A DNA stretch of 64,000 nt from Liolophura sinensis (lineage: Eukaryota > Mollusca > Polyplacophora > Chitonida > Chitonidae). The notes beneath the pieces were generated by a model. It was given only the letters and a program-made list of their open reading frames with translations, had not been told where the DNA came from and made no database searches. The first letter of the stretch is position 1; each line of letters begins with the position of its first letter. The stretch covers positions 54,468,046-54,532,045 of the forward strand of contig NC_088302.1 of NCBI RefSeq assembly GCF_032854445.1, in the 5' to 3' direction. Position numbers and translations under genes: made by a program. Of the stretch, positions 6,882 to 55,756 are shown piece after piece.

Positions 6882-9800
6882 ATGGATTCAGAAATAGCAA
6901 ATAAAGTGCTTCAGGCAAGGGGGAGAATCCAAGGCTATGTCAGGAAAACACCCTTAGAGAGGTCTCCGTTTTTGACAAATTTAATTTCAAATGGACCACA
7001 GGTGTATTTAAAGCTAGGTAGGAAATCTCAAAATAAAACATTTTTAATATGAAATAATAAGCTATTTTCAGTACCAGTATGCCTGTATTTCCTTCAGATC
7101 ACTGGTAAATATTAGACATATTTCACATCCATATTGTTGTTGTGTTGTCACAGGATGGTGTTTGTTTAAGGAAAATATCTCAACACAAACTTGAGAAGGT
7201 AACCTTGACCAGTATGTCATCCATAGAAGGATATGTACTACAATACTGCCATATTTTCTAGGATGTATATTTCAACACGTTCATGTGCATATCATTCTTT
7301 TAAACCATTTTAATCTTGTTTGTTTCTATGTATGATTTATGAGATGTGTCATATAACTCGTAAGAGGCGGTGGCCAACAGACAGTCAACAAGGTGAAAGA
7401 ATGAACAACTAAAAGTGTAGAGAAATGCAGTAATATGCATTTCTCTACACTTTTAGTTGTTATACCCTGAGAACCACATCTACATCTATAATATCGGAGA
7501 TAGCAGAGCACAGCGCATGTAAATTGTCATTGGCAGTAAAGCATATCTTTGGACTAATCAGGCCATGAAGCAAATTTTTATAATCAACAGGCCATGAAGC
7601 AGATTTCTGTACCCATCAGGCCATGATGCAGAGTTCTGTACTCATCAGGCCATGAAGCAGAGTTCTGTAATCATCAGGCCATGAAGCAGAGTTCTGTAAT
7701 CATCAGGCCATGAAGCAGAGTTCTGTACTCATTGGGCCATGAAGCAGAGTTCTGTACTCATCAGGCCATGAGGCAGAGTTCTGTACTCATTGGGCCATTA
7801 AGCAGAGTTCTGTACTCATCAGGCCATGAGGCAGAGTTCTGTACTCATCAGGCCATGAAGCAGAGTTCTGTACTCATCAGGCCATGAAGCAGAGTTCTGT
7901 ACTCATCAGGCCATGAAGCAGAGTTCTGTACTCATCAGGCCATGAAGCAGAGTTCTGTACTCATCAGGCCATGAGGCAGAGTTCTGTACTCATCAGGCCA
8001 TGAAGCAGAGTTCTGTAGGCCTACTCATCAGGCCATGAGGCAGAGTTCTGTACTCATCAGGCCATGAAGCAGAGCTCTGTACTCATCAGGCCATGAGGCA
8101 GAGTTCTGTACTCATCAGGCCATGAAGCAGAGTTTTGGACTCAGTTCCATATTACCCAGGCAATGTTTTCAGCTCATGTCTACACGAGTAAAGTGTGTAG
8201 ACGCAAGTAAGATGATAAGTGCTCGGATGTCAGCAGCTTTGAATGAAAAGCACAGTTTGGAGATATGTGGTGTGCAAAAAATTACTATATAAGAGTAGCA
8301 CACACTGTTGTGGCCAAAATGCTCGTACATTACTTTGTGTACTAGTGGTGCTCAAAGTTTGCCATTTGTATGACACATCTAAAGTGATATGTGTATCAGT
8401 GATTGTGGATGTTCAAATTTGGACACAGTTGATTTTTAGATAGTAATGAAACTGGTAAATAACTTCTTGTGAGTGAAGTTCTGAAGATAATAAATATATT
8501 CTTTTTCAGAATCAGAACAATTGACGGGCTCATTCAAAGTTCGTGGGGCATTTAACAAGCTGTGTCTGCTACAGGAGCAGTGTGAAGTGAGGGAGAAGGG
8601 AGCCCTGTCCGCATCCACAGGAAACCATGCCTTAGCCTGTGTTAGTGGTAGTAGTTCAGAATTAACCTTAAACAGTTGGCAGTCCTTTGTGCCCTAGAAA
8701 TTTGTCTTTACAAATGCGAAATGGAAATACAGATGTATATTAATCTAATGATAAAGCTAGCGCCTCTTCTGTTTGGAATGAAACCTTGTCACTTGTACAG
8801 TATTTTGCTACATAATTCATCCGGTGAATCTATTGAATTCATCCAATCCATACAAGTGAACAGAGCCGTCATGTTATCTTTAAAACCAGTGACTTGTAAG
8901 GCCATGATATGGACTCATGGTTTCTGTGTTAGTTGGCAGGTGTTTTTGTTACATGTACATGTATGTCTGGTCTAGTGTAAACATGACTGACCCCTCTGTT
9001 TTGTTTCTCTAATCAGACAGTAGCCATGAAGACCCTGGGCATTCCAGTTCAGATCTACACCCCAGAAACCATGACCAGTGCTAAGAAAGAGACTTTAGAG
9101 GCGTATGACGCTGATCTGGTGTTCCACGGGAAGGACTGTGTTGAGGCAGAAACCAAGGCCAGGCAAGCAGCAAAGGCAAGCATGTTGTTAGGTTGTTAGT
9201 CTGTGACCTTAAGTCATTACGTCTTGAAGTTTGCCCTTTACCTTTTGGGCTCTTTGCCTGTTGTAATTGGTCATGTACCTGTTGTAATTGGTCATTCACC
9301 TGTTGTAATTGGCCATTTACCTTTTGTAATTGGTCATTCACCTGTTGTAATTGGCCCTTTGCCTGTTGTATTTGGTCATTTACCTGTTGTAATTGGCCCT
9401 TTACCGGTTGTATTTGGTCAATTACCTGTTGTATTTGGTCATTTACCTGTTGTAATGGGTCAGTTACCAGTTTTAATTGGTCATTTACCTGTTGTAATTG
9501 GCCCTTTACCTGTTGTAGTTGGTCATTTACCTGTTGTATTTGGTCATTTGCCTATTGTAATAGGCGAGTGACTGTATTATATTAACATTATTGTTTAATG
9601 TGTTGTGCTTTTCTGTAGTCCCATGTTGTAGCAGTTATTACATCATAGTATCCATGTTGGTAACAGTCATTTTAAAAACTGTGTTTTGTAGACTTTGTAG
9701 AGAATATAAAAGGGTCATTTTACTTTATAGCCTTTCATATCATATTTTTTTTCATCCTTAAAAGTGATTTTCAGCTCATGCTGTCTTTCTCTCTGGTCAA

Positions 9801-12800
9801 ACATGAGAAGGTCTGATAGCAGCCTGAGGATGGCTGTAGGTTACCTCCATGCTCAGCCTGGTTTTGTCCCACCATAGTGCTGGTGACCCTGGTATAAAAT
9901 ATTCTCATGTAAGGCATATAGCACCAATGAAATAATATCAATAAATAAATAAAACACCAATCAAGTATATAAATAAATAAATGACATTTTTAGTGATACT
10001 TTGAAGATTGGCAACAAACCAAGCACAGACTTCACTGTAAGTATTCCCCATACATTGTATTTTGGAATGATTATTATTGCAGGAGTTGGGGGTGCCCTTT
10101 ATTTCACCATACAATGATATAGACGTGGCTGCAGGACAGGGAACAATTGGGTAAAGTTAGCATAGATATGACCAGGACTGTAAATTCATTATAAATACCT
10201 AGTATACAGCACATGGATGCCATATTAAAAAATGCAGAGTGAATGAAGATTTCCAAATTGATAGGTGACACATTGGTAAAATAAATTATTCAAACTTACG
10301 TATGTTACAGTGTGGAAATGTATGCATATTCAGATTGGTGTATGTCACAGTGTGGAGATGTATGAAGATTCAAACTGAGCATGTTACAGTGTGGAGATGT
10401 ATGAAGATTCAAACTGAGCATGTTACAGTGTGGAGATGTATGAAGATTCAAACTGAGCATGTTACAGTGTGGAGATGTATGAAGATTCAAACTGAGCATG
10501 TTACAGTGTGGAGATGTATGAAGATTCAAACTGAGCATGTTACAGTGTGGAGGTGTATGAAGATTCAAACTGAGCATGTTACAGTGTTGAGGTGTATGAA
10601 GATTCAAACTGAGCATGTTACAGTGTGGAGGTGTATGAAGATTCAAACTGAGCATGTTACAGTGTGGAGATGTATGAAGATTCAAACTGAGCATGTTACA
10701 GTGTGGAGATGTATGAAGATTCAAACTGAGCATGTTACAGTGTGGAGATGTATGAAGATTCAAACTGAGCATGTTACAGTGTGGAGGTGTATGAAGATTC
10801 AAACTGAGCATGTTACAGTGTGGAGGTGTATGAAGATTCAAACTGAGCATGTTACAGTGTGGAGATGTATGAAGATTCAAACTGAGCATGTTACAGTGTG
10901 GAGGTGTATGAAGATTCAAACTGAGCATGTTACAGTGTGGAGGTGTATGAAGATTCAAACTGAGCATGTTACAGTGTGGAGGTGTATGAAGATTCAAACT
11001 GAGCATGTTACAGTGTGGAGGTGTATGAAGATTCAAATTGAGCATGTTACAGTGTGGAGGTGTATGAAGATTCACACTGGTGTATGTTACAGTGTGGAGG
11101 TATGTGAGGATTCAAAAATCGTGTATGTAACAGTGAGGGGGTGTACACAGGTTAAAACTTGTGCATGTTACAGTGTGGAGGTGTATGAAGATTCAGCTGG
11201 TGTATGTTAGAGTGTGGGGATGTATGAAGATTCAGACTGGTGTATGTTACAGTGTGGAGATGTATGAAGATTCAGACTGGTGCATGTGACAGTGTGGAGA
11301 TGTGTGAAGATTCAAACTGCTGTATGTTACGGTGAGGAGATGTATGAAGATTCACACCAGTATATGTTACAGTGTGGAGATGTATGAAGATTGAAACTGG
11401 TGTATGTTACAGTGTGGAGATGTATGAAGATTCAGACTGGTGTATGTTACAGTGTGGAGATGTATGAAGATTCAAACTGGTGTATGTTACAGTGTGGAGA
11501 TGTATGAAGATTGAAACTGGTGTATGTTACAGTGTGGAGATGTATGAAGATTGAAACTGGTGTATGTTACAGTGTGGAGATATATGAAGATTCAAACTGG
11601 TGTATGTTACAGTGTGGAGATGTATGAAGGTTCAGACTGGTGCATATTACAGTGTGGAGATGTATGAAGATTCAAACGGGTGTATGTTACAGTGTGGAGA
11701 TGTATGAAGATTCAGACTGGTGTATGTTACAGTGTGGAGATGTATGAAGATTCAAACTGGTGTATGTTACAGTGTGGAGATGTATGAAGATTGAAACTGG
11801 TGTATGTTACAATGTGGAGATGTATGAAGATTCAAACTGGTGTGTATGATGCAGTGTGGAGATGTATGAAGATTCAACTGGTGTATGTTACAGTGTGGAG
11901 ATGTATGAAGATTCAAACTGGTGTATGATGCAGTGTGGAGATGTATGAAGATTCAAACTGGTGTATGATGCAGTGTGGAGATGTATGAAGATTCAACTGG
12001 TGTATGTTACAGTGTGGAGATGTATGAAGATTCACATTGGTGTATGTTACAGTGTGGAGATGTATGAAGATTCAAACTGGTGTATGTTACAGTGTGGAGA
12101 TGTATGAAGATTCAGACTGGTGCATGTTACAGTGTGGAGATGTGTGAAGATTCAAACTGCTGTATGTTACGGTGAGGAGATGTGTGAAGATTCACACCAG
12201 TATATGTTACAGTGTGGAGATGTATGAAGATTGAAACTGGTGTATGTTACAGTGTGGAGATGTGTGAAGATTCAGACTGGTGTATGTTACAGTGTGGAGA
12301 TGTATGAAGATTCAAACTGCTGTATGTTATGGTGAGGAGATGTGTGAAGATTCACACCAGTATATGTTACAGTGTGGAGATGTATGAAGATTGAAACTGC
12401 TGTATGTTACAGTGTGGAGATGTGTGAAGATTCACACCAGTATATGTTACAGTGTGGAGATGTATGAAGATTGAAACTGCTGTATGTTACAGTGTGGAGA
12501 TGTGTGAAGATTCACACCAGTATATGTTACAGTGTGGAGATGTATGAAGATTCAAACTGGTGTATGATGCAGTGTGGAGATGTATGAAGATTCAAACTGG
12601 TGTATGTTACAGTGTGGAGATGTATGAAGATTCACATTGGTGTATGTTACATTGTGGGGTGTACACAGATTCAAACTGATGCATGTTACAGTATGAAGAT
12701 GTATGAAGATTCAGACTGATGTGTTACAGCGTGGAGATATGTGAAATTCAAACAGATGTATGTTACACTGTGGAGATATGTGAAGATTGAAACTGGTGTA

Positions 12801-15800
12801 TGTTACAGTGTGGAGGTGTATGAAGATTCACACTGGTGTATGTTATAATGTGGAGATATGTGAAGATTCAAACTGGTGTATGTTACAGTGTTGAGATATG
12901 TGAAGATTGAAACTCATGTATGTAGCTGTGTGGAGATATGTAAAAATTGATACGTTTGTATGTCACAGTGTGGAGAAGGTTGAAGATTCAAACTGGTGTA
13001 TGTTACAGTGTGGAGGTGTTTGAAGATTAAAACTGGTGTGTGTTACAGTGTGGAGGTGTTTGAAGATTGAAACTGGTGTGTGTTACAGTGTGGAGGTGTT
13101 TGAAGATTCACACTGTTGAATATTACAGTTTGGAGGTGTATGAAGATTCAAACTGGTATATGTTACAGTGTGGGAGTGTATGTTTATTCAAAATTGTGTA
13201 CCTATGTACAGTGTGAGTGTGTACGAAGATTCAGACTGGTGTGTGTTACAGTGTGGGGATATGTGAAGAGTCAGACTGGTGTATATTACAGTGTGGAGGT
13301 GTATGAAGATTCAGTGTGGTGTATGTTACATTGTAAATATGTATGAAATTCAAACAGGTGTATATTACAGTGTGGAGATATGTGAAGATTGAAACTGGTG
13401 TATGTTACAGTGTGGAAGTGTCTGCAGATTCAGGCTGGTGTGTGTTACAGTGTGGAGATGTATGAAGATTCAAACTGGTGTATATTACAGTGTGTAAGTG
13501 TATGAAGATTCTGTGTGGCTTATGTTACATTGTAAATATGTATGAAATTCAGACAGGTGTATATTACAGTGTGGAGATATGTGAAGATTGAAACTGGTGT
13601 ATGTAACGGTGTGGAGGTGAATGAAAATTCAAACAGGTGTATGTTACAGTGTGGAGATGTATGAAGATTTACACTGGTGTATGTTACAGTGTGGAGGTGT
13701 ATGAAGATTCAGAATTGTGTACGTATGTTACAGTGTGGATGTGTATTAAAATTCAAACTGGTGTTACAGTGTGTAGATGTATAAAGACTGAAACAGTGTG
13801 TTACAGTGTTACAGTGTGGAGATATGTGAAGATTCAAACTGGTGTATGTTACAGTGTGGAGATATGTGAAGATTCGAACTTATGTATGTAGCTGTGTGGA
13901 GATATATGAAGATTGAAACCGGTGTATGTCATAGTCTGAAGGTGTTTGAAGATTCAAATGGGTGTATGTTACAGTGTGGAGGTATACTCATATTCAAACT
14001 GGCGTATGTTACAGTGTGGATGTGTATGCAGATTCAAAATGGTGTATGTTATAGTGTGGAAGTGTATGCAGATTCAGAATTGTGTATGTATGTTACAGTG
14101 TGAGTGTGTACGAAGATTCAAACGGGTGTATGTTACAGTGTGGGGATAGGTGAAGATTCATATTGGTGAATGTTACCATGTGGAGATGTGTGAAGAGTCA
14201 GACTAGTGTATGTCACAGTGAGGAGATGTATAAGGATTCAACTGGTGTAGGTTACAGTGTGGAGATGTATGAAGATTCAACTGGTGTATGTTACAGTGTG
14301 GAGATGTATGAAGATTCACATTGGTGTATGTTACAGTGTGGAGATGTATGAAGATTGAAACTGGTGTATGTTACAGTGTGGAGATATATGAAGATTCAAA
14401 CTGGTGTATGTTACAATGTGGAGGTGTATGAAGATTCAAACTGGTGCATGTTACAGTGTGGAGATGTATGAAGATTTACACTGGTGTATGTTACAGTGAG
14501 GAGATGTATGAAGATTCAGACTGGTGTATGTTACAGTGTGGAGATGTATGAAGATTCAGACTGGTGCATGTTACAGTGTGGAGATGTATGAAGATTCAGA
14601 CTGGTGTATGTTACAGTGTGGAGATGTATGAAGATTCAGACTGGTGCATGTTACAGTGTGGAGATGTATGAAGATTCAGACTGGTGTATGTTACAGTGTG
14701 GAGGTATGTGAAGATTCAGCTGCTGTATGTTACGGTGAGGAGATATGTGAAGATTCACACCAGTATATGTTACAGTGTGGAGATGTATGAAGATTCGGAC
14801 TGGTGTATGTTACAGTGTGGAGATATGTGGAAGTTCAAACTAGTGTGTGTTACAGTGTGGTTGTGTATGAAGATTCAGACTGGTGTGTATTATGGTGTGG
14901 AGATGTGTGAAGATTCAAACTGGTGTGGTTTACAGCGTGGAGACGTAAGACAATTCAGACTGGTGTGTATTATGGTGTGGAGATATGTGAAGATTCAAAC
15001 TAGTGTGTGTTACAGTGTGGAGGTGTAGGAAGATTCAGACTGGTGTGTATTATGGTGTGGAGATGTGTGAAGATTCAAACTGGTGTGGTTTACAGCGTGG
15101 AGACGTAAGACAATTCAGACTGGTGTGTATTATGGTGTGGAGATGTGTGAAGATTCAAACTAGTGTGTGTTACAGTGTGGAGGTGTTGGAAGATTCAGAC
15201 TTGTGTGTATTATGGTGTGGAGATGTGTGAAGATTCATTCTGGTGTGTGTTACAGTGTGGGGGTGTATGAAGATTCAGACTGGTGTATGTTACAGTGTTG
15301 AGATCTATGAAGATCTGAAGGAGGTGGATGCCGTCCTGGTAGCAGTGGGGGGAGGAGGTTTAATTGGTGGAATAGCAGCTTATCTTAAGCATATAAACCC
15401 TAGGATACAGGTAGGTATTAGACGGAAACCAATTTAAATAAGATAGGTCTGTGCAAACAACTGTTGTAAAACTATATGGCACTTCGAGAACACAAACCTC
15501 CACCATAGCAATATGTGAAATCCTCCCGCAACAGGCTAAAGGACAAGACTCTGCATTTCTGTCCCGTCTGTCAGTGGTGAAGAATCACTCCAGATGATCA
15601 CCAGACCCATACAATTGCAACAGACGAATCAGCTTGTGTCCAATCTGTTATGTCCAGTCTGTGACCTCTTGTGACAAGACATCACTGATGACAAATCAGC
15701 TCCTGTCCAGTCTATGACCTCTTTTGTAAGCTGTGACATGACATCATTGATGACAAATCAGCTCCTGTCCAGTCTATGATCTCTGTTGTCAGCTGTGACA

Positions 15801-42313: not shown

Positions 42314-44269
42314 TTTGTCCTGTAAGAACCGTACAAGACTATCGATCGACCTGATTTTGGACTGGATCAGGAGAAATTGGCAGAATCTAGTAGATCAAAG
42401 CATATACAACTGAGGAAGGAGGCAATGGAAAAAGCTTCTGGGGTTGCAGCACAGAATGCAGGCAACAGCCCCAACGCGGCAGAGATCAACACAACCGTGC
42501 TGTTCGAAGTAGTGCATTGTGACCTGATGACAGGGTGTTGGTTGGCAACTTCTTGGAGAGATAAAGTGCGGGGAAACTCGCGTCACAATGAGAGAACAAA
42601 CACTCTAGGCATTGTTCGACACTTTTTAAAAGAACTTATCGCCTCAAAAACGGATGCCGGGTAGCATATGTTGTACATCACTTCACTGACTTCTAACAGT
42701 CAATACATAACCGGTACCTGGAATAACTTCAGTGACATATGATCAACGAAATTTCCTATCTAGGTCATTCATAGGCCTTATTTGATTAAAACTATTTCAG
42801 TTGGAGATTGATCTCTATCCATCTTCCATTAACTACGAAATCTCTGTGAAATGTGTGAAAAAAGATCACTATGCTGATATGCAGTGATGTATGTATCCAA
42901 ACTTGTTTAATGTTCTACCACCACTGAAACGCCATTGAGGGAAGGCTAACGTGCACTATTTGGGTGTTTCTTGCCTCCACGTGCTCCGAGTGGAAATATA
43001 TCAGTAAATTATCAACGCTACACAGTACTGTAACTCCTCCCGCACAATTTGTCTTTGTTTATTCTTAGAGAAAGCCAAGAGCAAATCTGTGCAAGCGAAG
43101 GCAGAGAAAAGTCAGGTTCAATACATGGCGAACAAAAGTGATACGCAACACAATGCAGATTACTGACTGCAATGTCGAAAAGAACCGCTATCATATGAGC
43201 TGGTGATATCCAAGCATTTCATTCGCCCAGGTATGAATGCAAGGATGTAAATATAAGTCAATATTGCTGACGTTGTATTTCCTCCTAAATGAGGTAGGAG
43301 ATTACATTGATTTAAGCACCTTTTGTACACTGGACGCTCACAAAGATAAGAGAAACAGCAGTCAAAGATGGATTTGTTGTCCCTTTTTGTCATCCGTCTG
43401 TTATCTGTAGACTGCCTTCAGCTGTGACCACAGTTCATATTAGATCACTACGGCATCTCAAAGGGCTATATGTAGGGATTTTGGCTCCACGGGAAGACCT
43501 TATGCTGTTACTTCAGAAATCACTGAAAGTTTAATGTACTCCACTTACAGGTAACCAGATTTTACTTCAATTCCAGACAGGAAATTCAATGCTTGTTGTT
43601 TTTTGTCAAATATTTATTTATTACCCTCGTCATGTTCTTCTCGGTTACGGTCGTTTCTTTTTACGTTGCTTACGTTGCCTCTACTGCACTGTCTGCAGTT
43701 GTCTGTGAACGCGAATCTGAGAGTAATCTAAATTTGTTGCCATGTCGTTGCCCGTAACATAATTTTCCTTAATAATTATGGTCATAACAAATTTAAAGAA
43801 GGTATGCTATCAGCACTGCATATCTGTCAGAGCGTACTAAGGTTCTCTAAAAAGTTTCTGTGTCGTATCAGGAGTAAATTATGTAAATGGACAAGGCACT
43901 CAGATTATTCTGATTGGATAAAATCATCTTGGTCACATGATTTTGCAAACTGGCAGGCTCAATGCAGCTAGATTTCTCCAACTTCCATAGTTCGCATCGC
44001 AAAAACCGCAAAAAGTATATTTGCCGTTAAACAAAGTTACCAACATCCCTGGGATTTCCTTTAGATAATTGACTTGAAAAGGTTCACACTACATCTTTGT
44101 ATTGTTAAACTGGGAAACAGTCCCCAAAATTTATGTTACGCATGAGCCGCTATTTTTCTATTTTTAAGACGTGTGTTGTAATCTTTGTCTTCATTTTCAG
44201 GCAATTTGGGGCTACCCTGGTAACGACATGAGGATTGGTAACTATAGTGGACTGTGGGCAATCTTTTGA

Positions 44270-44640
44270 ACATGGAAGTTTTCATATCAACAAGGAAACC
44301 TTGAGGAACACGGAATTCTTAACACCGACAAGACAGTCTTTTTATCACGGAATTCTTAGTATCTAGAAGACAATCTTCTGAACACGAAATTCTTAACATC
44401 AAGAAGGCCATCTTCTGAACACGGAATTCTTAACATCGAGAAGGCAATCTGTTGATCACGGAATTCATAACATCGAGGAGGTGATGTATAGAACACGGAC
44501 TTCTTAACACCGACAAGGCAAGATGGAGAAGGCAATGTTCTAAACAAGGAATTCTTAGAATTGACAAGGGAATCCTCAAAACTCAGGGACACGGAAGTCT
44601 ATACATTAAATTAAACAAGAGAATCTTGTAGACTGTAGAC
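44270..44640. repeat. Degenerate ~38-bp repeats ancestral to the 45-bp array
   Basis: Irregular units of AACACGGAATTCTTAACATC plus GAGAAGGCAATCTTCTG recur six to eight times. They share the AACACGG...TTAACAT...GACAAG skeleton of the 45-bp unit that follows. The same degenerate block is found at 52,945-53,315 and at 61,840-62,060. Confidence 0.75.
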
Positions 44641-44699
44641 CTTTATCCTGAACTCGAAGACATCCAAATGTTAGCATTGGGAAGATAATCTACAGAACA

Positions 44700-45895
44700 T
44701 GACAGGGAAGTGTTAACATTGACAAGATAATCCATAGAACACGGTGACGCGGAGGTGTTAACATTGACAAGACAATCCATAGAACACGGTGACGGGGAGG
44801 TGTTAACATTGACACGACAATCCATAGAACACGGTGATGCAGAGGTGTTAACATTGACACGACAACCCATAGAACACGGTGACGCGGAGGTGTTAACATT
44901 GACAAGACAATCCATAGAACACGGGGACGAGGAGGTGTTATCATTGACACGACAATCCATAGAACACGGTGACGCGGAGGTGTCAACATTGACAAAATAA
45001 TCCACAGAACACGGTGACGCGGAGGTGTCAACATTGACAAGACAATCCATAGAACACGGTGACGCGGAGGTGTCAACATTGACAAAATAATCCACAGAAC
45101 ACGGTGACGCGGAGGTGTCAACATTGACAAGATAATCCATAGAACACGGTGATGCAGAGGTGTTAACATTGACACGACAATCCATAGAACACGGTGACGC
45201 GGAGGTGTTAACATTGACACGACAATCCATAGAACACGGTGACGCAGAGGTGTTAACATTGACAAGATAATCCATAGAACACGGTGACGCAGAGGTGTTA
45301 ACATTGACACGACAATCCATAGAACAAGGGGACGCGGAGGTGTTAACATTGACACGACAATCCATAGAACACGGGGACGCGGAGGTGTTAACATTGACAC
45401 GACAATCCATAGAACACGGGGACGCAGAGGTGTTAACATTGACAAGACAATCCATAGAACACGGTGACGCGGAGGTGTTAACATTGACAAGATAATCCAT
45501 AGAACACGGTGACGCAGAGGTGTTATCATTGACAAGACAATCCATAGAACACGGTGACGCGGAGGTGTCAACATTGACAAGATAATCCATAGAACACGGT
45601 GATGCAGAGGTGTTAACATTGACACGACAATCCATAGAACAAGGGGACGCGGAGGTGTTACCATTGACACGACAATCCATAGAACACAGTGACGCGGAGG
45701 TGTTATCATTGACAAGATAACCCATAGAACACGGTGACGCAGAGGTGTTAACATTGACACGACAATCCATAGAACACGGTGACGCGGAGGTGTTAACATT
45801 GACAAGACAATCCATAGAACACGGTGACGCAGAGGTGTTAACATTGACACGACAATCCATAGAACACGGGGACGCGGAGGTGTTACCATTGACTA
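44700..45895. repeat. 45-bp minisatellite upstream of GT31 gene 1
   Basis: About 26 exact-length units (AACACGGTGACGCGGAGGTG, then TTAACATTGACAAGATAATC, CATAG) end about 55 bp before the GT31 start codon. Variants alternate (GACGCGG/GATGCAG, GACAAG/GACACG, ACGGTG/ACGGGG). Since 45 is divisible by three and the unit lacks stops in several frames, open frames up to about 400 codons run on the minus strand (MDCRVNVNTSASPCS repeats in one frame). I regard these as repeat artefacts unless expression is shown. Confidence 0.95.
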
Positions 45896-45953
45896 GACAA
45901 TCGTGTTAACGGAGCGCGTTCGCCTGAATGTTAGCGATAAGTTAACTGTGATC

Positions 45954-47081
45954 ATGGAGGCCAAAGAGCCCGGTGAACGCCTGAAACTGATCCAGCAACT
46001 ATTACTACTGTCAGTATGGTTGATGTGCATAGTTATATTGTTTTTCCTTGTCTACACTGAAGAGGTTCCCACGGAATACACGCTGCGCACTGACTCAAAG
46101 CGGCTATCGAAGACGTACCTTGCAAGAAAATTAAAATACAACGAGCGTGTTCAAGAGATATTCGAGAGGAAACGTTTGACACAATCTTCGTATCCTCTGA
46201 CAGCAAGTACACCTTACATTCTGGAGAATCCCCAAATATGCAAAGGCAATGTCACGGTCTTGATAATTGTGCACACCGCAATGCATCACTTTCACAGACG
46301 AAATCGTATTCGTTCCACATTCGGAAACATAAACCTATTCACATCAACGTATACTATTCGCATTGCGTTCCTCCTGGGTGAGACCACTAGCCAAAAAACA
46401 ACTGCCAAAGTCAAAGAAGAGGACGAGCAGTATCACGACATCGTTCAAGCGCCATTTAGCGATACTTACAAGAACTTAACCCTGAAGGGTGTCATGGCCT
46501 TCCACTGGATCTCCCTTCATTGCTCTCATGCAGAACTAGTGTTGAAAATTGACGACGATGTGTTTATCAATATATTTCAAGTCGTAGGCTATTACCGCTC
46601 CAAATATTCCCCCCAGGAACGGCAGATCCTTTGCAATGTGCTGGACGGTAGTCCCATAATGCGGAAGGAGACTCGATGGCGGATTGATGACTTCGATCTG
46701 TTTCGAGGACTGAAGGTTTACCCTCCATATTGCGCTGGTTTCGTTGTCCTAATGACCACTGATGCAATCAAGGCCATGTTCCACGCTGCGTACTTTACAC
46801 CCTTCTTTTGGGTTGACGACGTGTACCTTTATGGTTTATTGCCATCAATGGCTGGGATTAGGCATGGCGTACTCAACCGTAACGTGACGCTAAATCTTGA
46901 AACTTGTAAGAAAGCGTATATGGGGGCAACCCCAAGCTTCTTTGCTTGTGACGCAAAAGATGATAACCAATTTTCATATTTCTGGAATAGGAGTGTATTG
47001 TTGCTAAATACCTTTATGCGTCATTTAGTCAACCAACAGGTCCTTTCCAGCATCACGTCCAACACCACAAAGCCTTTCTAA
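45954..47081 (+). CDS. Beta-1,3-galactosyltransferase-like GT31 glycosyltransferase, gene 1
   Basis: Intronless gene for a 375-residue type II membrane protein. It has a short cytosolic tail (1-14), one transmembrane anchor (about 15-34), a stem, then the GT31 catalytic domain. Visible family motifs are RRNRIRSTFG (115-124), FLLGE (139-143), EDEQYHDIV (156-164), NLTLK (174-178), the DxD metal/UDP-sugar site KIDDDVF (198-204), YPPYCAG (256-262) and VDDVYLYG (287-294, the usual EDVY(V/T)G with Asp for Glu). NxS/T sequons occur at 99, 174, 310, 345 and 370. It should act in the Golgi, adding galactose or N-acetylhexosamine in beta-1,3 linkage; the exact substrate cannot be told. The ATG at 45,954 has A at -3 and G at +4; upstream codons back to a TAG include no ATG. 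The neighbouring copies are 8.7 and 16.3 kb downstream. Confidence 0.93.
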   Translation: MEAKEPGERLKLIQQLLLLSVWLMCIVILFFLVYTEEVPTEYTLRTDSKRLSKTYLARKLKYNERVQEIFERKRLTQSSYPLTASTPYILENPQICKGNVTVLIIVHTAMHHFHRRNRIRSTFGNINLFTSTYTIRIAFLLGETTSQKTTAKVKEEDEQYHDIVQAPFSDTYKNLTLKGVMAFHWISLHCSHAELVLKIDDDVFINIFQVVGYYRSKYSPQERQILCNVLDGSPIMRKETRWRIDDFDLFRGLKVYPPYCAGFVVLMTTDAIKAMFHAAYFTPFFWVDDVYLYGLLPSMAGIRHGVLNRNVTLNLETCKKAYMGATPSFFACDAKDDNQFSYFWNRSVLLLNTFMRHLVNQQVLSSITSNTTKPF

Positions 47082-51309: not shown

Positions 51310-53374
51310 ATCGCCTCAAAAACGGATACCGGGTAGCATATGTTGTACATCACTTCACTGACTTCTAACAGTCAATACATAACCGGTACCTGGAATAACT
51401 TCAGTGACATATGATCAACGAAATTTCCTATCTAGGTCATTCATAGGCCTTATTTGATTAAAACTATTTCAGTTGGAGATTGATCTCTATCCATCTTCCA
51501 TTAACTACGAAATCTCTGTGAAATGTGTGAAAAAAGATCACTATGCTGATATGCAGTGATGTATGTATCCAAACTTGTTTAATGTTCTACCACCACTGAA
51601 ACGCCATTGAGGGAAGGCTAACGTGCACTATTTGGGTGTTTCTTGCCTCCACGTGCTCCGAGTGGAAATATATCAGTAAATTATCAACGCTACACAGTAC
51701 TGTAACTCCTCCCGCACAATTTGTCTTTGTTTATTCTTAGAGAAAGCCAAGAGCAAATCTGTGCAAGCGAAGGCAGAGAAAAGTCAGGTTCAATACATGG
51801 CGAACAAAAGTGATACGCAACACAATGCAGATTACTGACTGCAATGTCGAAAAGAACCGCTATCATATGAGCTGGTGATATCCAAGCATTTCATTCGCCC
51901 AGGTATGAATGCAAGGATGTAAATATAAGTCAATATTGCTGACGTTGTATTTCCTCCTAAATGAGGTAGGAGATTACATTGATTTAAGCACCTTTTGTAC
52001 ACTGGACGCTCACAAAGATAAGAGAAACAGCAGTCAAAGATGGATTTGTTGTCCCTTTTTGTCATCCGTCTGTTATCTGTAGACTGCCTTCAGCTGTGAC
52101 CACAGTTCATATTAGATCACTACGGCATCTCAAAGGGCTATATGTAGGGATTTTGGCTCCACGGGAAGACCTTATGCTGTTACTTCAGAAATCACTGAAA
52201 GTTTAATGTACTCCACTTACAGGTAACCAGATTTTACTTCAATTCCAGACAGGAAATTCAATGCTTGTTGTTTTTTGTCAAATATTTATTTATTACCCTC
52301 GTCATGTTCTTCTCGGTTACGGTCGTTTCTTTTTACGTTGCTTACGTTGCCTCTACTGCACTGTCTGCAGTTGTCTGTGAACAACGCGAATCTGAGAGTA
52401 ATCTAAATTTGTTGCCATGTCGTTGCCCGTAACATAATTTTCCTTAATAATTATGGTCATAACAAATTTAAAGAAGGTATGCTATCAGCACTGCATATCT
52501 GTCAGAGCGTACTAAGGTTCTCTAAAAAGTTTCTGTGTCGTATCAGGAGTAAATTATGTAAATGGACAAGGCACTCAGATTATTCTGATTCGATAAAATC
52601 ATCTTGGTCACATGATTTTGCAAACTGGCAGGCTCAATGCAGCTAGATTTCTCCAACTTCCATAGTTCGCATCGCAAAAACCGCAAAAAGTATATTTGCC
52701 GTTAAACAAAGTTACCAACATCCCTGGGATTTCCTTTAGATAATTGACTTGAAAAGGTTCACACTACATCTTTGTATTGTTAAACTGGGAAACAGTCCCC
52801 AAAATTTATGTTACGCATGAGCCGCTATTTTTTTATTTTTAAGACGTGTGTTGTAATCTTTGTCTTCATTTTCAGGCAATTTGGGGCTACCCTGGTAACG
52901 ACATGAGGATTGGTAACTATAGTGGACTGTGGGCAATCTTTTGAACATGGAAGTTTTCATATCAACAAGGAAACCTTGAGGAACACGGAATTCTTAACAC
53001 CGACAAGACAGTCTTTTTATCACGGAATTCTTAGTATCTAGAAGACAATCTTCTGAACACGAAATTCTTAACATCAAGAAGGCCATCTTCTGAACACGGA
53101 ATTCTTAACATCGAGAAGGCAATCTGTTGATCACGGAATTCATAACATCGAGGAGGTGATGTATAGAACACGGACTTCTTAACACCGACAAGGCAAGATG
53201 GAGAAGGCAATGTTCTAAACAAGGAATTCTTAGAATTGACAAGGGAATCCTCAAAACTCAGGGACACGGAAGTCTATACATTAAATTAAACAAGAGAATC
53301 TTGTAGACTGTAGACCTTTATCCTGAACTCGAAGACATCCAAATGTTAGCATTGGGAAGATAATCTACAGAACA

Positions 53375-54570
53375 TGACAGGGAAGTGTTAACATTGACAA
53401 GATAATCCATAGAACACGGTGACGCGGAGGTGTTAACATTGACAAGACAATCCATAGAACACGGTGACGGGGAGGTGTTAACATTGACACGACAATCCAT
53501 AGAACACGGTGATGCAGAGGTGTTAACATTGACACGACAACCCATAGAACACGGTGACGCGGAGGTGTTAACATTGACAAGACAATCCATAGAACACGGG
53601 GACGAGGAGGTGTTATCATTGACACGACAATCCATAGAACACGGTGACGCGGAGGTGTCAACATTGACAAACTAATCCACAGAACACGGTGACGCGGAGG
53701 TGTCAACATTGACAAGACAATCCATAGAACACGGTGACGCGGAGGTGTCAACATTGACAAAATAATCCACAGAACACGGTGACGCGGAGGTGTCAACATT
53801 GACAAGATAATCCATAGAACACGGTGATGCAGAGGTGTTAACATTGACACGACAATCCATAGAACACGGTGACGCGGAGGTGTTAACATTGACACGACAA
53901 TCCATAGAACACGGTGACGCAGAGGTGTTAACATTGACAAGATAATCCATAGAACACGGTGACGCAGAGGTGTTAACATTGACACGACAATCCATAGAAC
54001 AAGGGGACGCGGAGGTGTTAACATTGACACGACAATCCATAGAACACGGGGACGCGGAGGTGTTAACATTGACACGACAATCCATAGAACACGGGGACGC
54101 AGAGGTGTTAACATTGACAAGACAATCCATAGAACACGGTGACGCGGAGGTGTTAACATTGACAAGATAATCCATAGAACACGGTGACGCAGAGGTGTTA
54201 TCATTGACAAGACAATCCATAGAACACGGTGACGCGGAGGTGTCAACATTGACAAGATAATCCATAGAACACGGTGATGCAGAGGTGTTAACATTGACAC
54301 GACAATCCATAGAACAAGGGGACGCGGAGGTGTTACCATTGACACGACAATCCATAGAACACAGTGACGCGGAGGTGTTATCATTGACAAGATAACCCAT
54401 AGAACACGGTGACGCAGAGGTGTTAACATTGACACGACAATCCATAGAACACGGTGACGCGGAGGTGTTAACATTGACAAGACAATCCATAGAACACGGT
54501 GACGCAGAGGTGTTAACATTGACACGACAATCCATAGAACACGGGGACGCGGAGGTGTTACCATTGACTA
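53375..54570. repeat. 45-bp minisatellite upstream of GT31 gene 2
   Basis: The duplicate of the array at 44,700-45,895, with about 26 units in the same order. A single A-to-C change near 53,671 creates a stop in one minus-strand frame, so the ~400-codon frame of copy 1 is split here. This supports the view that this frame is not maintained as protein. Confidence 0.95.
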
Positions 54571-54628
54571 GACAATCGTGTTAACGGAGCGCGTTCGCCT
54601 GAATGTTAGCGATAAGTTAACTGTGATC

Positions 54629-55756
54629 ATGGAGGCCAAAGAGCCCGGTGAACGCCTGAAACTGATCCAGCAACTATTACTACTGTCAGTATGGTTGATG
54701 TGCATAGTTATATTGTTTTTCCTTGTCTACACTGAAGAGGTTCCCACGGAATACACGCTGCGCACTGACTCAAAGCGGCTATCGAAGACGTACCTTGCAA
54801 GAAAATTAAAATACAACGAGCGTGTTCAAGAGATATTCGAGAGGAAACGTTTGACACAATCTTCGTATCCTCTGACAGCAAGTACACCTTACATTCTGGA
54901 GAATCCCCAAATATGCAAAGGCAATGTCACGGTCTTGATAATTGTGCACACCGCAATGCATCACTTTCACAGACGAAATCGTATTCGTTCCACATTCGGA
55001 AACATAAACCTATTCACATCAACGTATACTATTCGCATTGCGTTCCTCCTGGGTGAGACCACTAGCCAAAAAACAACTGCCAAAGTCAAAGAAGAGGACG
55101 AGCAGTATCACGACATCGTTCAAGCGCCATTTAGCGATACTTACAAGAACTTAACCCTGAAGGGTGTCATGGCCTTCCACTGGATCTCCCTTCATTGCTC
55201 TCATGCAGAACTAGTGTTGAAAATTGACGACGATGTGTTTATCAATATATTTCAAGTCGTAGGCTATTACCGCTCCAAATATTCCCCCCAGGAACGGCAG
55301 ATCCTTTGCAATGTGCTGGACGGTAGTCCCATAATGCGGAAGGAGACTCGATGGCGGATTGATGACTTCGATCTGTTTCGAGGACTGAAGGTTTACCCTC
55401 CATATTGCGCTGGTTTCGTTGTCCTAATGACCACTGATGCAATCAAGGCCATGTTCCACGCTGCGTACTTTACACCCTTCTTTTGGGTTGACGACGTGTA
55501 CCTTTATGGTTTATTGCCATCAATGGCTGGGATTAGGCATGGCGTACTCAACAGTAACGTGACGCTAAATCTTGAAACTTGTAAGAAAGCGTATATGGGG
55601 GCAACCCCAAGCTTCTTTGCTTGTTTAGCAAACAATGATAACCAATTTTCATATTTCTGGAATAGGAGTGTATTGCTGCTAAATTCTTCTATGCGTCAGT
55701 TAGTGAACCAACAGGTCCTTTCCACCATCACGGCGAAGACCACAAATCCTTTTTAA
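54629..55756 (+). CDS. Beta-1,3-galactosyltransferase-like GT31 glycosyltransferase, gene 2
   Basis: Intronless, 375 residues, identical to gene 1 for the first 308 residues, including the anchor, the DxD site (KIDDDVF) and VDDVYLYG. Differences cluster at the C-terminus: NSNVT for NRNVT, CLANNDNQ for CDAKDDNQ, NSSMRQ for NTFMRH and changes in the last 12 residues. From there on the 3' flank resembles the third copy's flank more than gene 1's. The intact frame and preserved motifs suggest a functional Golgi enzyme. The start is the ATG matching gene 1, in the same strong context. The divergent C-terminus on an otherwise identical protein suggests that recent duplication or gene conversion stopped near residue 308. 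Confidence 0.93.
   Translation: MEAKEPGERLKLIQQLLLLSVWLMCIVILFFLVYTEEVPTEYTLRTDSKRLSKTYLARKLKYNERVQEIFERKRLTQSSYPLTASTPYILENPQICKGNVTVLIIVHTAMHHFHRRNRIRSTFGNINLFTSTYTIRIAFLLGETTSQKTTAKVKEEDEQYHDIVQAPFSDTYKNLTLKGVMAFHWISLHCSHAELVLKIDDDVFINIFQVVGYYRSKYSPQERQILCNVLDGSPIMRKETRWRIDDFDLFRGLKVYPPYCAGFVVLMTTDAIKAMFHAAYFTPFFWVDDVYLYGLLPSMAGIRHGVLNSNVTLNLETCKKAYMGATPSFFACLANNDNQFSYFWNRSVLLLNSSMRQLVNQQVLSTITAKTTNPF

What the first reader, a model, noticed from the sequence alone, without database searches (positions are those of the whole stretch)
10340..15310. ~120 decoy copies of the exon 5 acceptor fill intron 4 of the PLP-enzyme gene
The array unit contains TATGTTACAG followed by TGTGGAGATGTATGAAGAT, and the real junction is TATGTTACAG/TGTTGAGATCTATGAAGAT. 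Phase and family length agree exactly with this acceptor (18 residues between AGQGTI and GGGG, as in human serine racemase). The 5-kb intron is thus almost wholly made of copies of its own 3' end. The units are 39 or 40 bp and give stops when read from upstream acceptors, so mis-splicing should be deleterious. How the last copy is chosen is an open question. The exon differs from the units at a few positions that might mark it.
Basis: partly seen in the sequence, partly recalled or inferred. Interest (0 to 1): 0.88.

Follow-up and report, generated by a model that had tools for sequence, protein, structure and literature searches.

The report
Intron packed with splice-site copies
One intron of a metabolic-enzyme gene in a chiton (a mollusc) has swollen to 5 kb by copying its own end about 125 times, so most copies look like the place where splicing should stop; the kind of structure is known from lancelets, but this one is unusually large and is a natural test of how cells pick the right splice site.

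Summary
Intron 4 (10151-15295) of a threonine/serine dehydratase-like gene is 97% a tandem array of mostly 39-40 bp units (10288-15312): 125 copies plus the real acceptor. Each unit is the last ~23 nt of the intron plus the first ~17-19 nt of exon 5. In 105 of 125 copies the acceptor AG survives; 7 are identical to the real site from -27 to +3. In the 609-Mb genome the unit was found only here (87 of 87 hits). Assembly statistics identify the chiton Liolophura sinensis. Two paralogues have the same intron and exon 5, but no array, so the exon came first and seeded the array. None of the 105 AG-bearing copies would give the native protein if used.

This kind is already described: "mirages", minisatellites spanning an exon-intron boundary, in amphioxus Adh3, globins and others, with a donor-side counterpart in human ABCA7. 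It is therefore a new, very large member, in a mollusc. The best account is neutral minisatellite growth, with the terminal site chosen by exon definition from its downstream donor. A rough local score cannot mark the true site (45 of 105 copies score at least as well). No transcript data were available; whether copies are ever used is untested.

The parts
6882..19834 (+). Eight-exon gene for a 327-aa PLP enzyme of the threonine/serine dehydratase family: exons 6882-7017, 8510-8640, 9017-9175, 10083-10150, 15296-15410, 16943-17068, 18118-18219, 19688-19834
   Evidence: Open reading frame of the joined exons, 984 nt with stop; NCBIfam NF005292 385 bits against cut-off 371; best solved relative TdcB 2gn0, E 5.1e-57. 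Exon ends are predictions; no transcripts seen.
10083..10150 (+). Exon 4, ending ACAATTGG|GTAAAG
   Evidence: Reading frame and same 68-nt exon and same junction phase in paralogues L006 and L007
10151..15295 (+). Intron 4, 5,145 bp; paralogue intron 4 is 377 nt (L006) and 408 nt (L007)
   Evidence: Junctions from frame and paralogues
10288..15272 (+). 125 tandem copies of the intron-4/exon-5 boundary; consensus ATTCAAACTGGTGTATGTTACAG|TGTGGAGATGTATGAAG (bar = copied acceptor)
   Evidence: AG kept in 105 of 125
10368..11069 (+). Homogeneous block of 18 39-bp units, probably the youngest expansion
   Evidence: 17 of the 18 units share the same three differences from consensus
14834..15272 (+). 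Exon-proximal part with a 160-bp (4-unit) higher-order repeat in which about every second unit reads TTATGG, so has lost the AG. Of the last 12 copies 7 keep AG, among them the one next to the real site (AG ending at 15255)
   Evidence: Lag-4 identity 0.928 against 0.757 at lag 1 in the tail; AG states
15273..15312 (+). Terminal array unit, which holds the real acceptor (TATGTTACAG, AG at 15294-15295) and the first 17 nt of exon 5
15296..15410 (+). Exon 5, T|GTT GAG ATC TAT GAA GAT..., 115 nt, followed by donor CAG|GTAGGT
   Evidence: 115 nt in the paralogue L006 too; donor 8 of 9 to consensus on my simple count, best array GT 7 of 9

Best explanation
It is an exon-boundary minisatellite of the kind called a 'mirage'. 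In an ancestor with a short intron 4, a stretch of about 40 bp made of the intron's 3' end and the first codons of exon 5 was tandemly duplicated. It then grew by slippage or unequal exchange to 126 copies, with block duplications. The array has no function of its own that I can see. The last copy stays the real acceptor because it is the only one with an intact coding exon and a good donor (CAG|GTAGGT) 115 nt downstream, so the spliceosome recognises it across the exon (exon definition, nearest acceptor to the donor). Selection on the coding frame keeps it so. Shown: anatomy, uniqueness, direction of copying, coding consequences. Inferred: use of the terminal acceptor, the exon-definition choice, neutrality.
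For: Unit found nowhere else in the genome: 87 of 87 hits in this array. Paralogues on C11 have the same intron position and phase, and exon 5 is 115 nt in L006, without such an array. The exon-5 start encodes a motif kept in bacterial TdcB (GTIGLEIMEDL against GTIGVEIYEDL), so the exon is older than the array. Both exon-unit differences are third-codon positions, and at +4 the unit keeps the paralogues' G. Read in the exon's frame the unit gives VEMYED. Of 105 AG-bearing copies, 0 would reach the native stop. 7 copies equal the real site from -27 to +3, and 45 of 105 score at least as high on a rough 18-site matrix, so something beyond the local site must decide. The best GT in the array is 7 of 9, the exon 5 donor 8 of 9. 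Precedents: amphioxus mirages with normal splicing and cross-exon proximity. The window is minisatellite-rich: 21 arrays, 12.4 of 64 kb.
Against: No transcript evidence here. In human data the cross-exon preference for 3' sites was only a weakening of the upstream preference when both flanking introns are long, so exon definition alone may not give full fidelity. The matrix is small and from three related genes, two of them near-identical. Four of the seven donors of this gene score only 5-6 of 9, so donor strength is not decisive in general. Array-flank similarity as such is not rare: 5 of 14 other arrays of the window also exceeded their shuffle maximum against a flank (not examined for exons). 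AG loss in 5 of the 12 nearest copies against 15 of 113 others (Fisher p 0.024; units not independent) could mean selection against near competitors, which would not be strictly neutral. Copy number rests on one assembly (14x HiFi, mean read 8.3 kb).
Confidence: 0.8

Rival explanations
1. The array acts as a splicing rheostat: a fraction of transcripts use the internal acceptors, are frameshifted or stopped and destroyed, and array length sets the enzyme's level.
For: 105 copies keep AG and 102 keep CAG after much divergence; all 105 lead to premature stops; the real acceptor is the weakest of 19 on the rough matrix. In ABCA7 longer arrays go with lower expression and more exon skipping.
Against: No transcripts examined; the paralogues manage without an array; nothing shows selection for copy number; AG is lost more often near the exon. 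In ABCA7 unit retention was only about 2% and did not change with length.
Confidence: 0.1
2. The array is a satellite or transposon-borne repeat that landed next to the exon and by chance or conversion came to resemble it.
For: The window has many minisatellites.
Against: Unit not found elsewhere in the genome; exact register across the splice junction, 17 of 19 exon bases; the exon's coding motif is ancient and present in arrayless paralogues.
Confidence: 0.03
3. RNA structure of the array hides the internal acceptors and leaves the last one free.
For: Would explain why identical sites are ignored.
Against: The last 631 nt (14800-15430) fold no better than shuffles (z +1.35; 18 of 20 shuffles fold at least as well); only this stretch was folded.
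Confidence: 0.04
4. The gene is dying: internal acceptors are used, the protein is lost, and the array is the footprint of a decaying locus.
For: Acceptor weak on the rough matrix, large array in the intron.
Against: 327-codon frame intact; over exons 2-6 69% amino-acid identity to paralogue L006 with pN 0.188 against pS 0.77, saturated. This shows long-term but not recent constraint.
Confidence: 0.05

Closest known systems
Amphioxus 'mirages' (Adh3; globins BflGb6 and BflGb9; reported also in troponin C and PGBD5)
   Same: Minisatellite-like tandem copies of an intron-exon boundary with splice signals in many units. BflGb6 is the same geometry (3' end of intron plus 5' part of exon). Splicing reported undisturbed (PMC3087553, PMC3902484, passages read).
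   Different: Here 126 units of mostly 39-40 bp against 3 or 6 units of 150-160 bp in the two BflGb6 haplotypes; a mollusc instead of a cephalochordate; no RT-PCR here.
Human ABCA7 intron 18 VNTR (25 bp, about 12 to 427 copies)
   Same: Intronic VNTR whose units begin with the exon's own splice signal, with up to hundreds of copies; one-unit retention gives a frameshift (PMC5954066, passages read).
   Different: It carries the donor of exon 18, not an acceptor; copy number is polymorphic and linked to disease; splicing was measured.
Internal tandem repeats at exon-intron boundaries of human segmental duplications
   Same: Minisatellite growth at a boundary changes intron structure (PMC2812944, passages read).
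   Different: About 4 units of 30 bp on average, recent paralogues, may lead to novel introns.
Duplicated splice-site competition experiments (Reed and Maniatis, as cited in PMC9225289; original not read)
   Same: Competing sites, choice by proximity.
   Different: Experimental constructs; intron-centric rule there, exon-centric needed here.

Membership tests
Mirage (exon-boundary minisatellite) | Tandem repeat whose unit spans an exon-intron boundary of the host gene | tested here: met
   Unit = intron 3' end + 17-19 nt of exon 5 in register
Mirage (exon-boundary minisatellite) | Many but not all units keep the splice signal | tested here: met
   AG in 105 of 125
Mirage (exon-boundary minisatellite) | Concerted evolution inside the array with more divergent edges | tested here: inconclusive
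   Homogeneous blocks inside; the 12 copies before the terminal unit average 6.0 differences and the two first units 4.5, but an inner block (units 60-99) also averages 5.3
Mirage (exon-boundary minisatellite) | Regular splicing not disturbed | not testable with these tools
   No RNA data held; RNA-seq exists for the assembly (SAMN35319765-69, PMC11068029)
Mirage (exon-boundary minisatellite) | Length instability between haplotypes or tissues | not testable with these tools
   One assembly only
   Best solved match TdcB threonine dehydratase 5.1e-57, best serine racemase 3e-44; NCBIfam threonine/serine dehydratase over cut-off
Recursive or zero-length-exon splicing sites | Acceptor directly followed by GT (AG|GT) | tested here: not met
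   Base +1 after the copied acceptor is T in 122 and C in 3 of 125 copies

The most novel reading that the evidence does not exclude
Array length works as a tunable splicing brake: about 105 near-equal acceptors compete with the true one, a measurable share of transcripts is lost to premature stops, and copy-number changes between animals set the level of this dehydratase, with the thinning of AGs near the exon as the trace of selection.
Probability: 0.08. Interest if true: 0.75.

Novelty: new member of a known kind. Interest (0 to 1): 0.45.

Why it matters
It extends boundary-copying minisatellites to a mollusc at about twenty times the copy number of the amphioxus globin case, with a clean direction of copying from paralogues. 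Seven copies equal the true acceptor from -27 to +3 in one natural intron, which makes it a ready experiment on what beyond the local sequence fixes splice-site choice. The existing RNA-seq of the same species could answer it directly.

Tried and rejected
Other intron arrays of the gene as further boundary copies: of five intron arrays only the intron-4 one matches an exon boundary (score 69 against a shuffle maximum of 28 in 300; the other four at p 0.07-0.79). That test included the 23 intronic bases of the terminal unit; the exon-only version is. In one search I also compared 15 arrays of the window with 400 nt on either side: besides the intron-4 array (28 against 27), 5 others exceeded their shuffle maximum in 200 (15670, 24571, 44257, 44706, 61841). 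I did not look into these; some may be array pieces beyond the borders drawn by the repeat finder. The 36-bp array of paralogue L006 next to its exon 7 acceptor looked like a boundary copy by eye but is not (p 0.47). Generality in the genome: 41 exon loci of two families (30 of 138 kinase matches; 11 of 11 sugar transporter matches) showed 0 arrays within 100 nt of the matched exon. The sample leans to long open frames and is small. RNA structure: none in the last 631 nt. Donor-like GTs inside the array: none at 8 of 9 or more. Recursive splicing: the copied acceptor lacks AG|GT. Exon differences as a mark: third-codon changes only.

A first count put AG loss at 6 of 11 copies near the exon keeping it (p 0.016); it had left out the copy next to the real site. 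The corrected count is 7 of 12 with AG against 98 of 113 (p 0.024).

A search for mirage-like reports outside amphioxus used; I saw no molluscan case in those listings, which is no proof of absence. Canestro 2002 was not held and is cited through PMC3087553 and PMC3902484.
Full report
WHAT IS THERE. Between 10288 and 15312 lies a tandem array, period 40, 126 units. It fills 5,008 of the 5,145 bp of intron 4 of an eight-exon gene. The joined exons give an unbroken 327-aa protein that passes NCBI's threonine/serine dehydratase model (385 bits, cut-off 371) and is nearest to TdcB among solved structures. The array runs without a break across the predicted acceptor at 15295/15296 and ends 17-19 nt inside exon 5. 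The unit is ATTCAAACTGGTGTATGTTACAG|TGTGGAGATGTATGAAG. The real end is ATTCAGACTGGTGTATGTTACAG|TGTTGAGATCTATGAAG.

IS IT MORE THAN CHANCE. The exon bases match the unit at 17 of 19 fixed positions (about 1e-7). Comparing the exon alone with shuffled units reaches the score in 1 of 5000. In the 609-Mb genome the unit, allowing 3 mismatches in 29, was found 87 times, all in this array and including the exon itself; the reversed control was found 0 times. Similarity of an array to its flank is not rare in itself: 5 of 14 other arrays of the window also exceeded their shuffle maximum. What is special here is the register across a coding junction.

WHICH ORGANISM. G000 has 632 contigs, with C1 96,433,062, C7 60,359,117, C8 58,388,612 and C11 32,819,725 bp. 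These equal lengths in the scaffold table of the chiton assembly GCA_032854445.1 (PMC11068029, passages), published as Liolophura japonica and corrected to L. sinensis (PMC12441733, whole text). Totals differ slightly (609,464,459 here, 609,495,693 in print), and C6 is 82,489,547 here against 82,493,220 for scaffold_2. Hemocyanin domains, 8 matches, fit a mollusc.

WHICH CAME FIRST. Two neighbouring paralogues on C11 (L006, L007) have the same intron-4 position and phase; exons 3 to 6 are 159, 68, 115 and 126 nt in the window gene and in L006. Their introns 4 are 377 and 408 nt and hold no such array. Their exon 5 begins A|ATG GAG ATT TAC GAG GAT (L006) and A|ATG GAA ATT TAC GAG GAC (L007), and the protein motif is shared with bacterial TdcB. 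The exon is thus older and the array was copied from it. In the exon's frame the unit reads VEMYED; the exon says VEIYED. Both base differences are third-codon positions. At +4 the unit agrees with the paralogues (G) and the exon has changed silently. At +10 all three differ (exon C, paralogues T, unit G), and only the unit's base would change the amino acid. If the leftmost copy keeps the old flank, the ancestral intron was about 163 nt (10151-10313); this is inference.

COPIES AS ACCEPTORS. 105 of 125 copies keep AG, 102 keep CAG, and 7 are identical to the real site from -27 to +3, so no model that sees only that span can tell them apart. On a rough matrix from 18 other acceptors of the three genes the real site scores lowest of 19; 38 of 105 copies score higher and 7 tie. 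If any of the 105 were used, translation would stop early: 104 of 105 stop inside the retained array and 1 in frameshifted exon sequence. The array holds no GT that reaches 8 of 9 donor matches, whereas exon 5's own donor does; but four of the seven donors of this gene reach only 5-6. Among the last 12 copies 7 keep AG, against 98 of 113 before (Fisher p 0.024). These units belong largely to a 160-bp block repeat, so they are not independent, and the copy next to the real site keeps its AG.

HOW IT MOST LIKELY WORKS. The most likely account is growth of a neutral minisatellite from a boundary duplication, with choice of the terminal acceptor by exon definition. [quoted passage not shown] Intron 5 is 1,532 nt and intron 4 is 5,145 nt, so exon definition is the expected mode. 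This step is inferred. RNA folding of the last 631 nt gives no sign of masking (z +1.35).

WHAT IS KNOWN. Tandem repeats that span exon-intron boundaries were named mirages at amphioxus Adh3 and occur at the acceptor side in globin BflGb6; the authors' Adh3 and globin RT-PCR data suggest undisturbed splicing (PMC3087553, passages). Troponin C and PGBD5 are further cases (PMC3902484, passages). Human ABCA7 has the mirror case at a donor, with up to about 427 copies and about 2% one-unit retention (PMC5954066, passages). The finding is therefore a new member of a known kind: large, in a mollusc, with direction shown.

HOW COMMON HERE. The window is rich in minisatellites (21 arrays, 12.4 kb), but of five intron arrays in this gene only this one copies a boundary. 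A small sample of 41 exon loci found no array within 100 nt.

LIMITS. No RNA data, no other individuals, no other chitons; exon ends are predictions; the array length rests on one assembly of 14x HiFi reads averaging 8,347 bp, long enough to span it.

Noticed in passing
9175-9176: Intron 3 appears to use a GC donor (AAG|GCAAGC): of the GT and GC positions tried for the end of exon 3 only five GC ones kept the frame open, and this one fits a donor best.
   Followed up: partly
7553-8143, 9253-9561, 15670-16008, 18676-19634: Five of the seven introns of this gene carry minisatellites of different units (29, 21, 40, 62 and 44 bp), counting the intron-4 array itself.
   Followed up: yes
44257-47078 and 52932-55753: Segmental duplication about 8.7 kb apart: each copy holds 37- and 45-bp arrays followed by a 394-aa open frame that looks like a beta-1,3-galactosyltransferase (name from recall, not searched); on the other strand the 45-bp arrays have open frames of 400-420 codons.
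   Followed up: no
window arrays starting at 15670, 24571, 44257, 44706, 61841: Five further arrays share a piece with a flank within 400 nt above their shuffle maximum; not examined for exon boundaries.
   Followed up: no
L006 2722-3095 (C11): A 36-bp array of about 10 copies sits in intron 6 of one C11 paralogue; the repeat finder reports none in the loci of its near-identical neighbour (98% amino-acid identity over 194 codons), so arrays turn over fast here.
   Followed up: partly
L007 intron 4: The array-free paralogue carries a long (AT)n(AG)n microsatellite in the same intron.
   Followed up: no
G000:C8:37880506-37891931: Eight hemocyanin beta-sandwich domain matches in a row, in line with a molluscan hemocyanin gene.
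   Followed up: no
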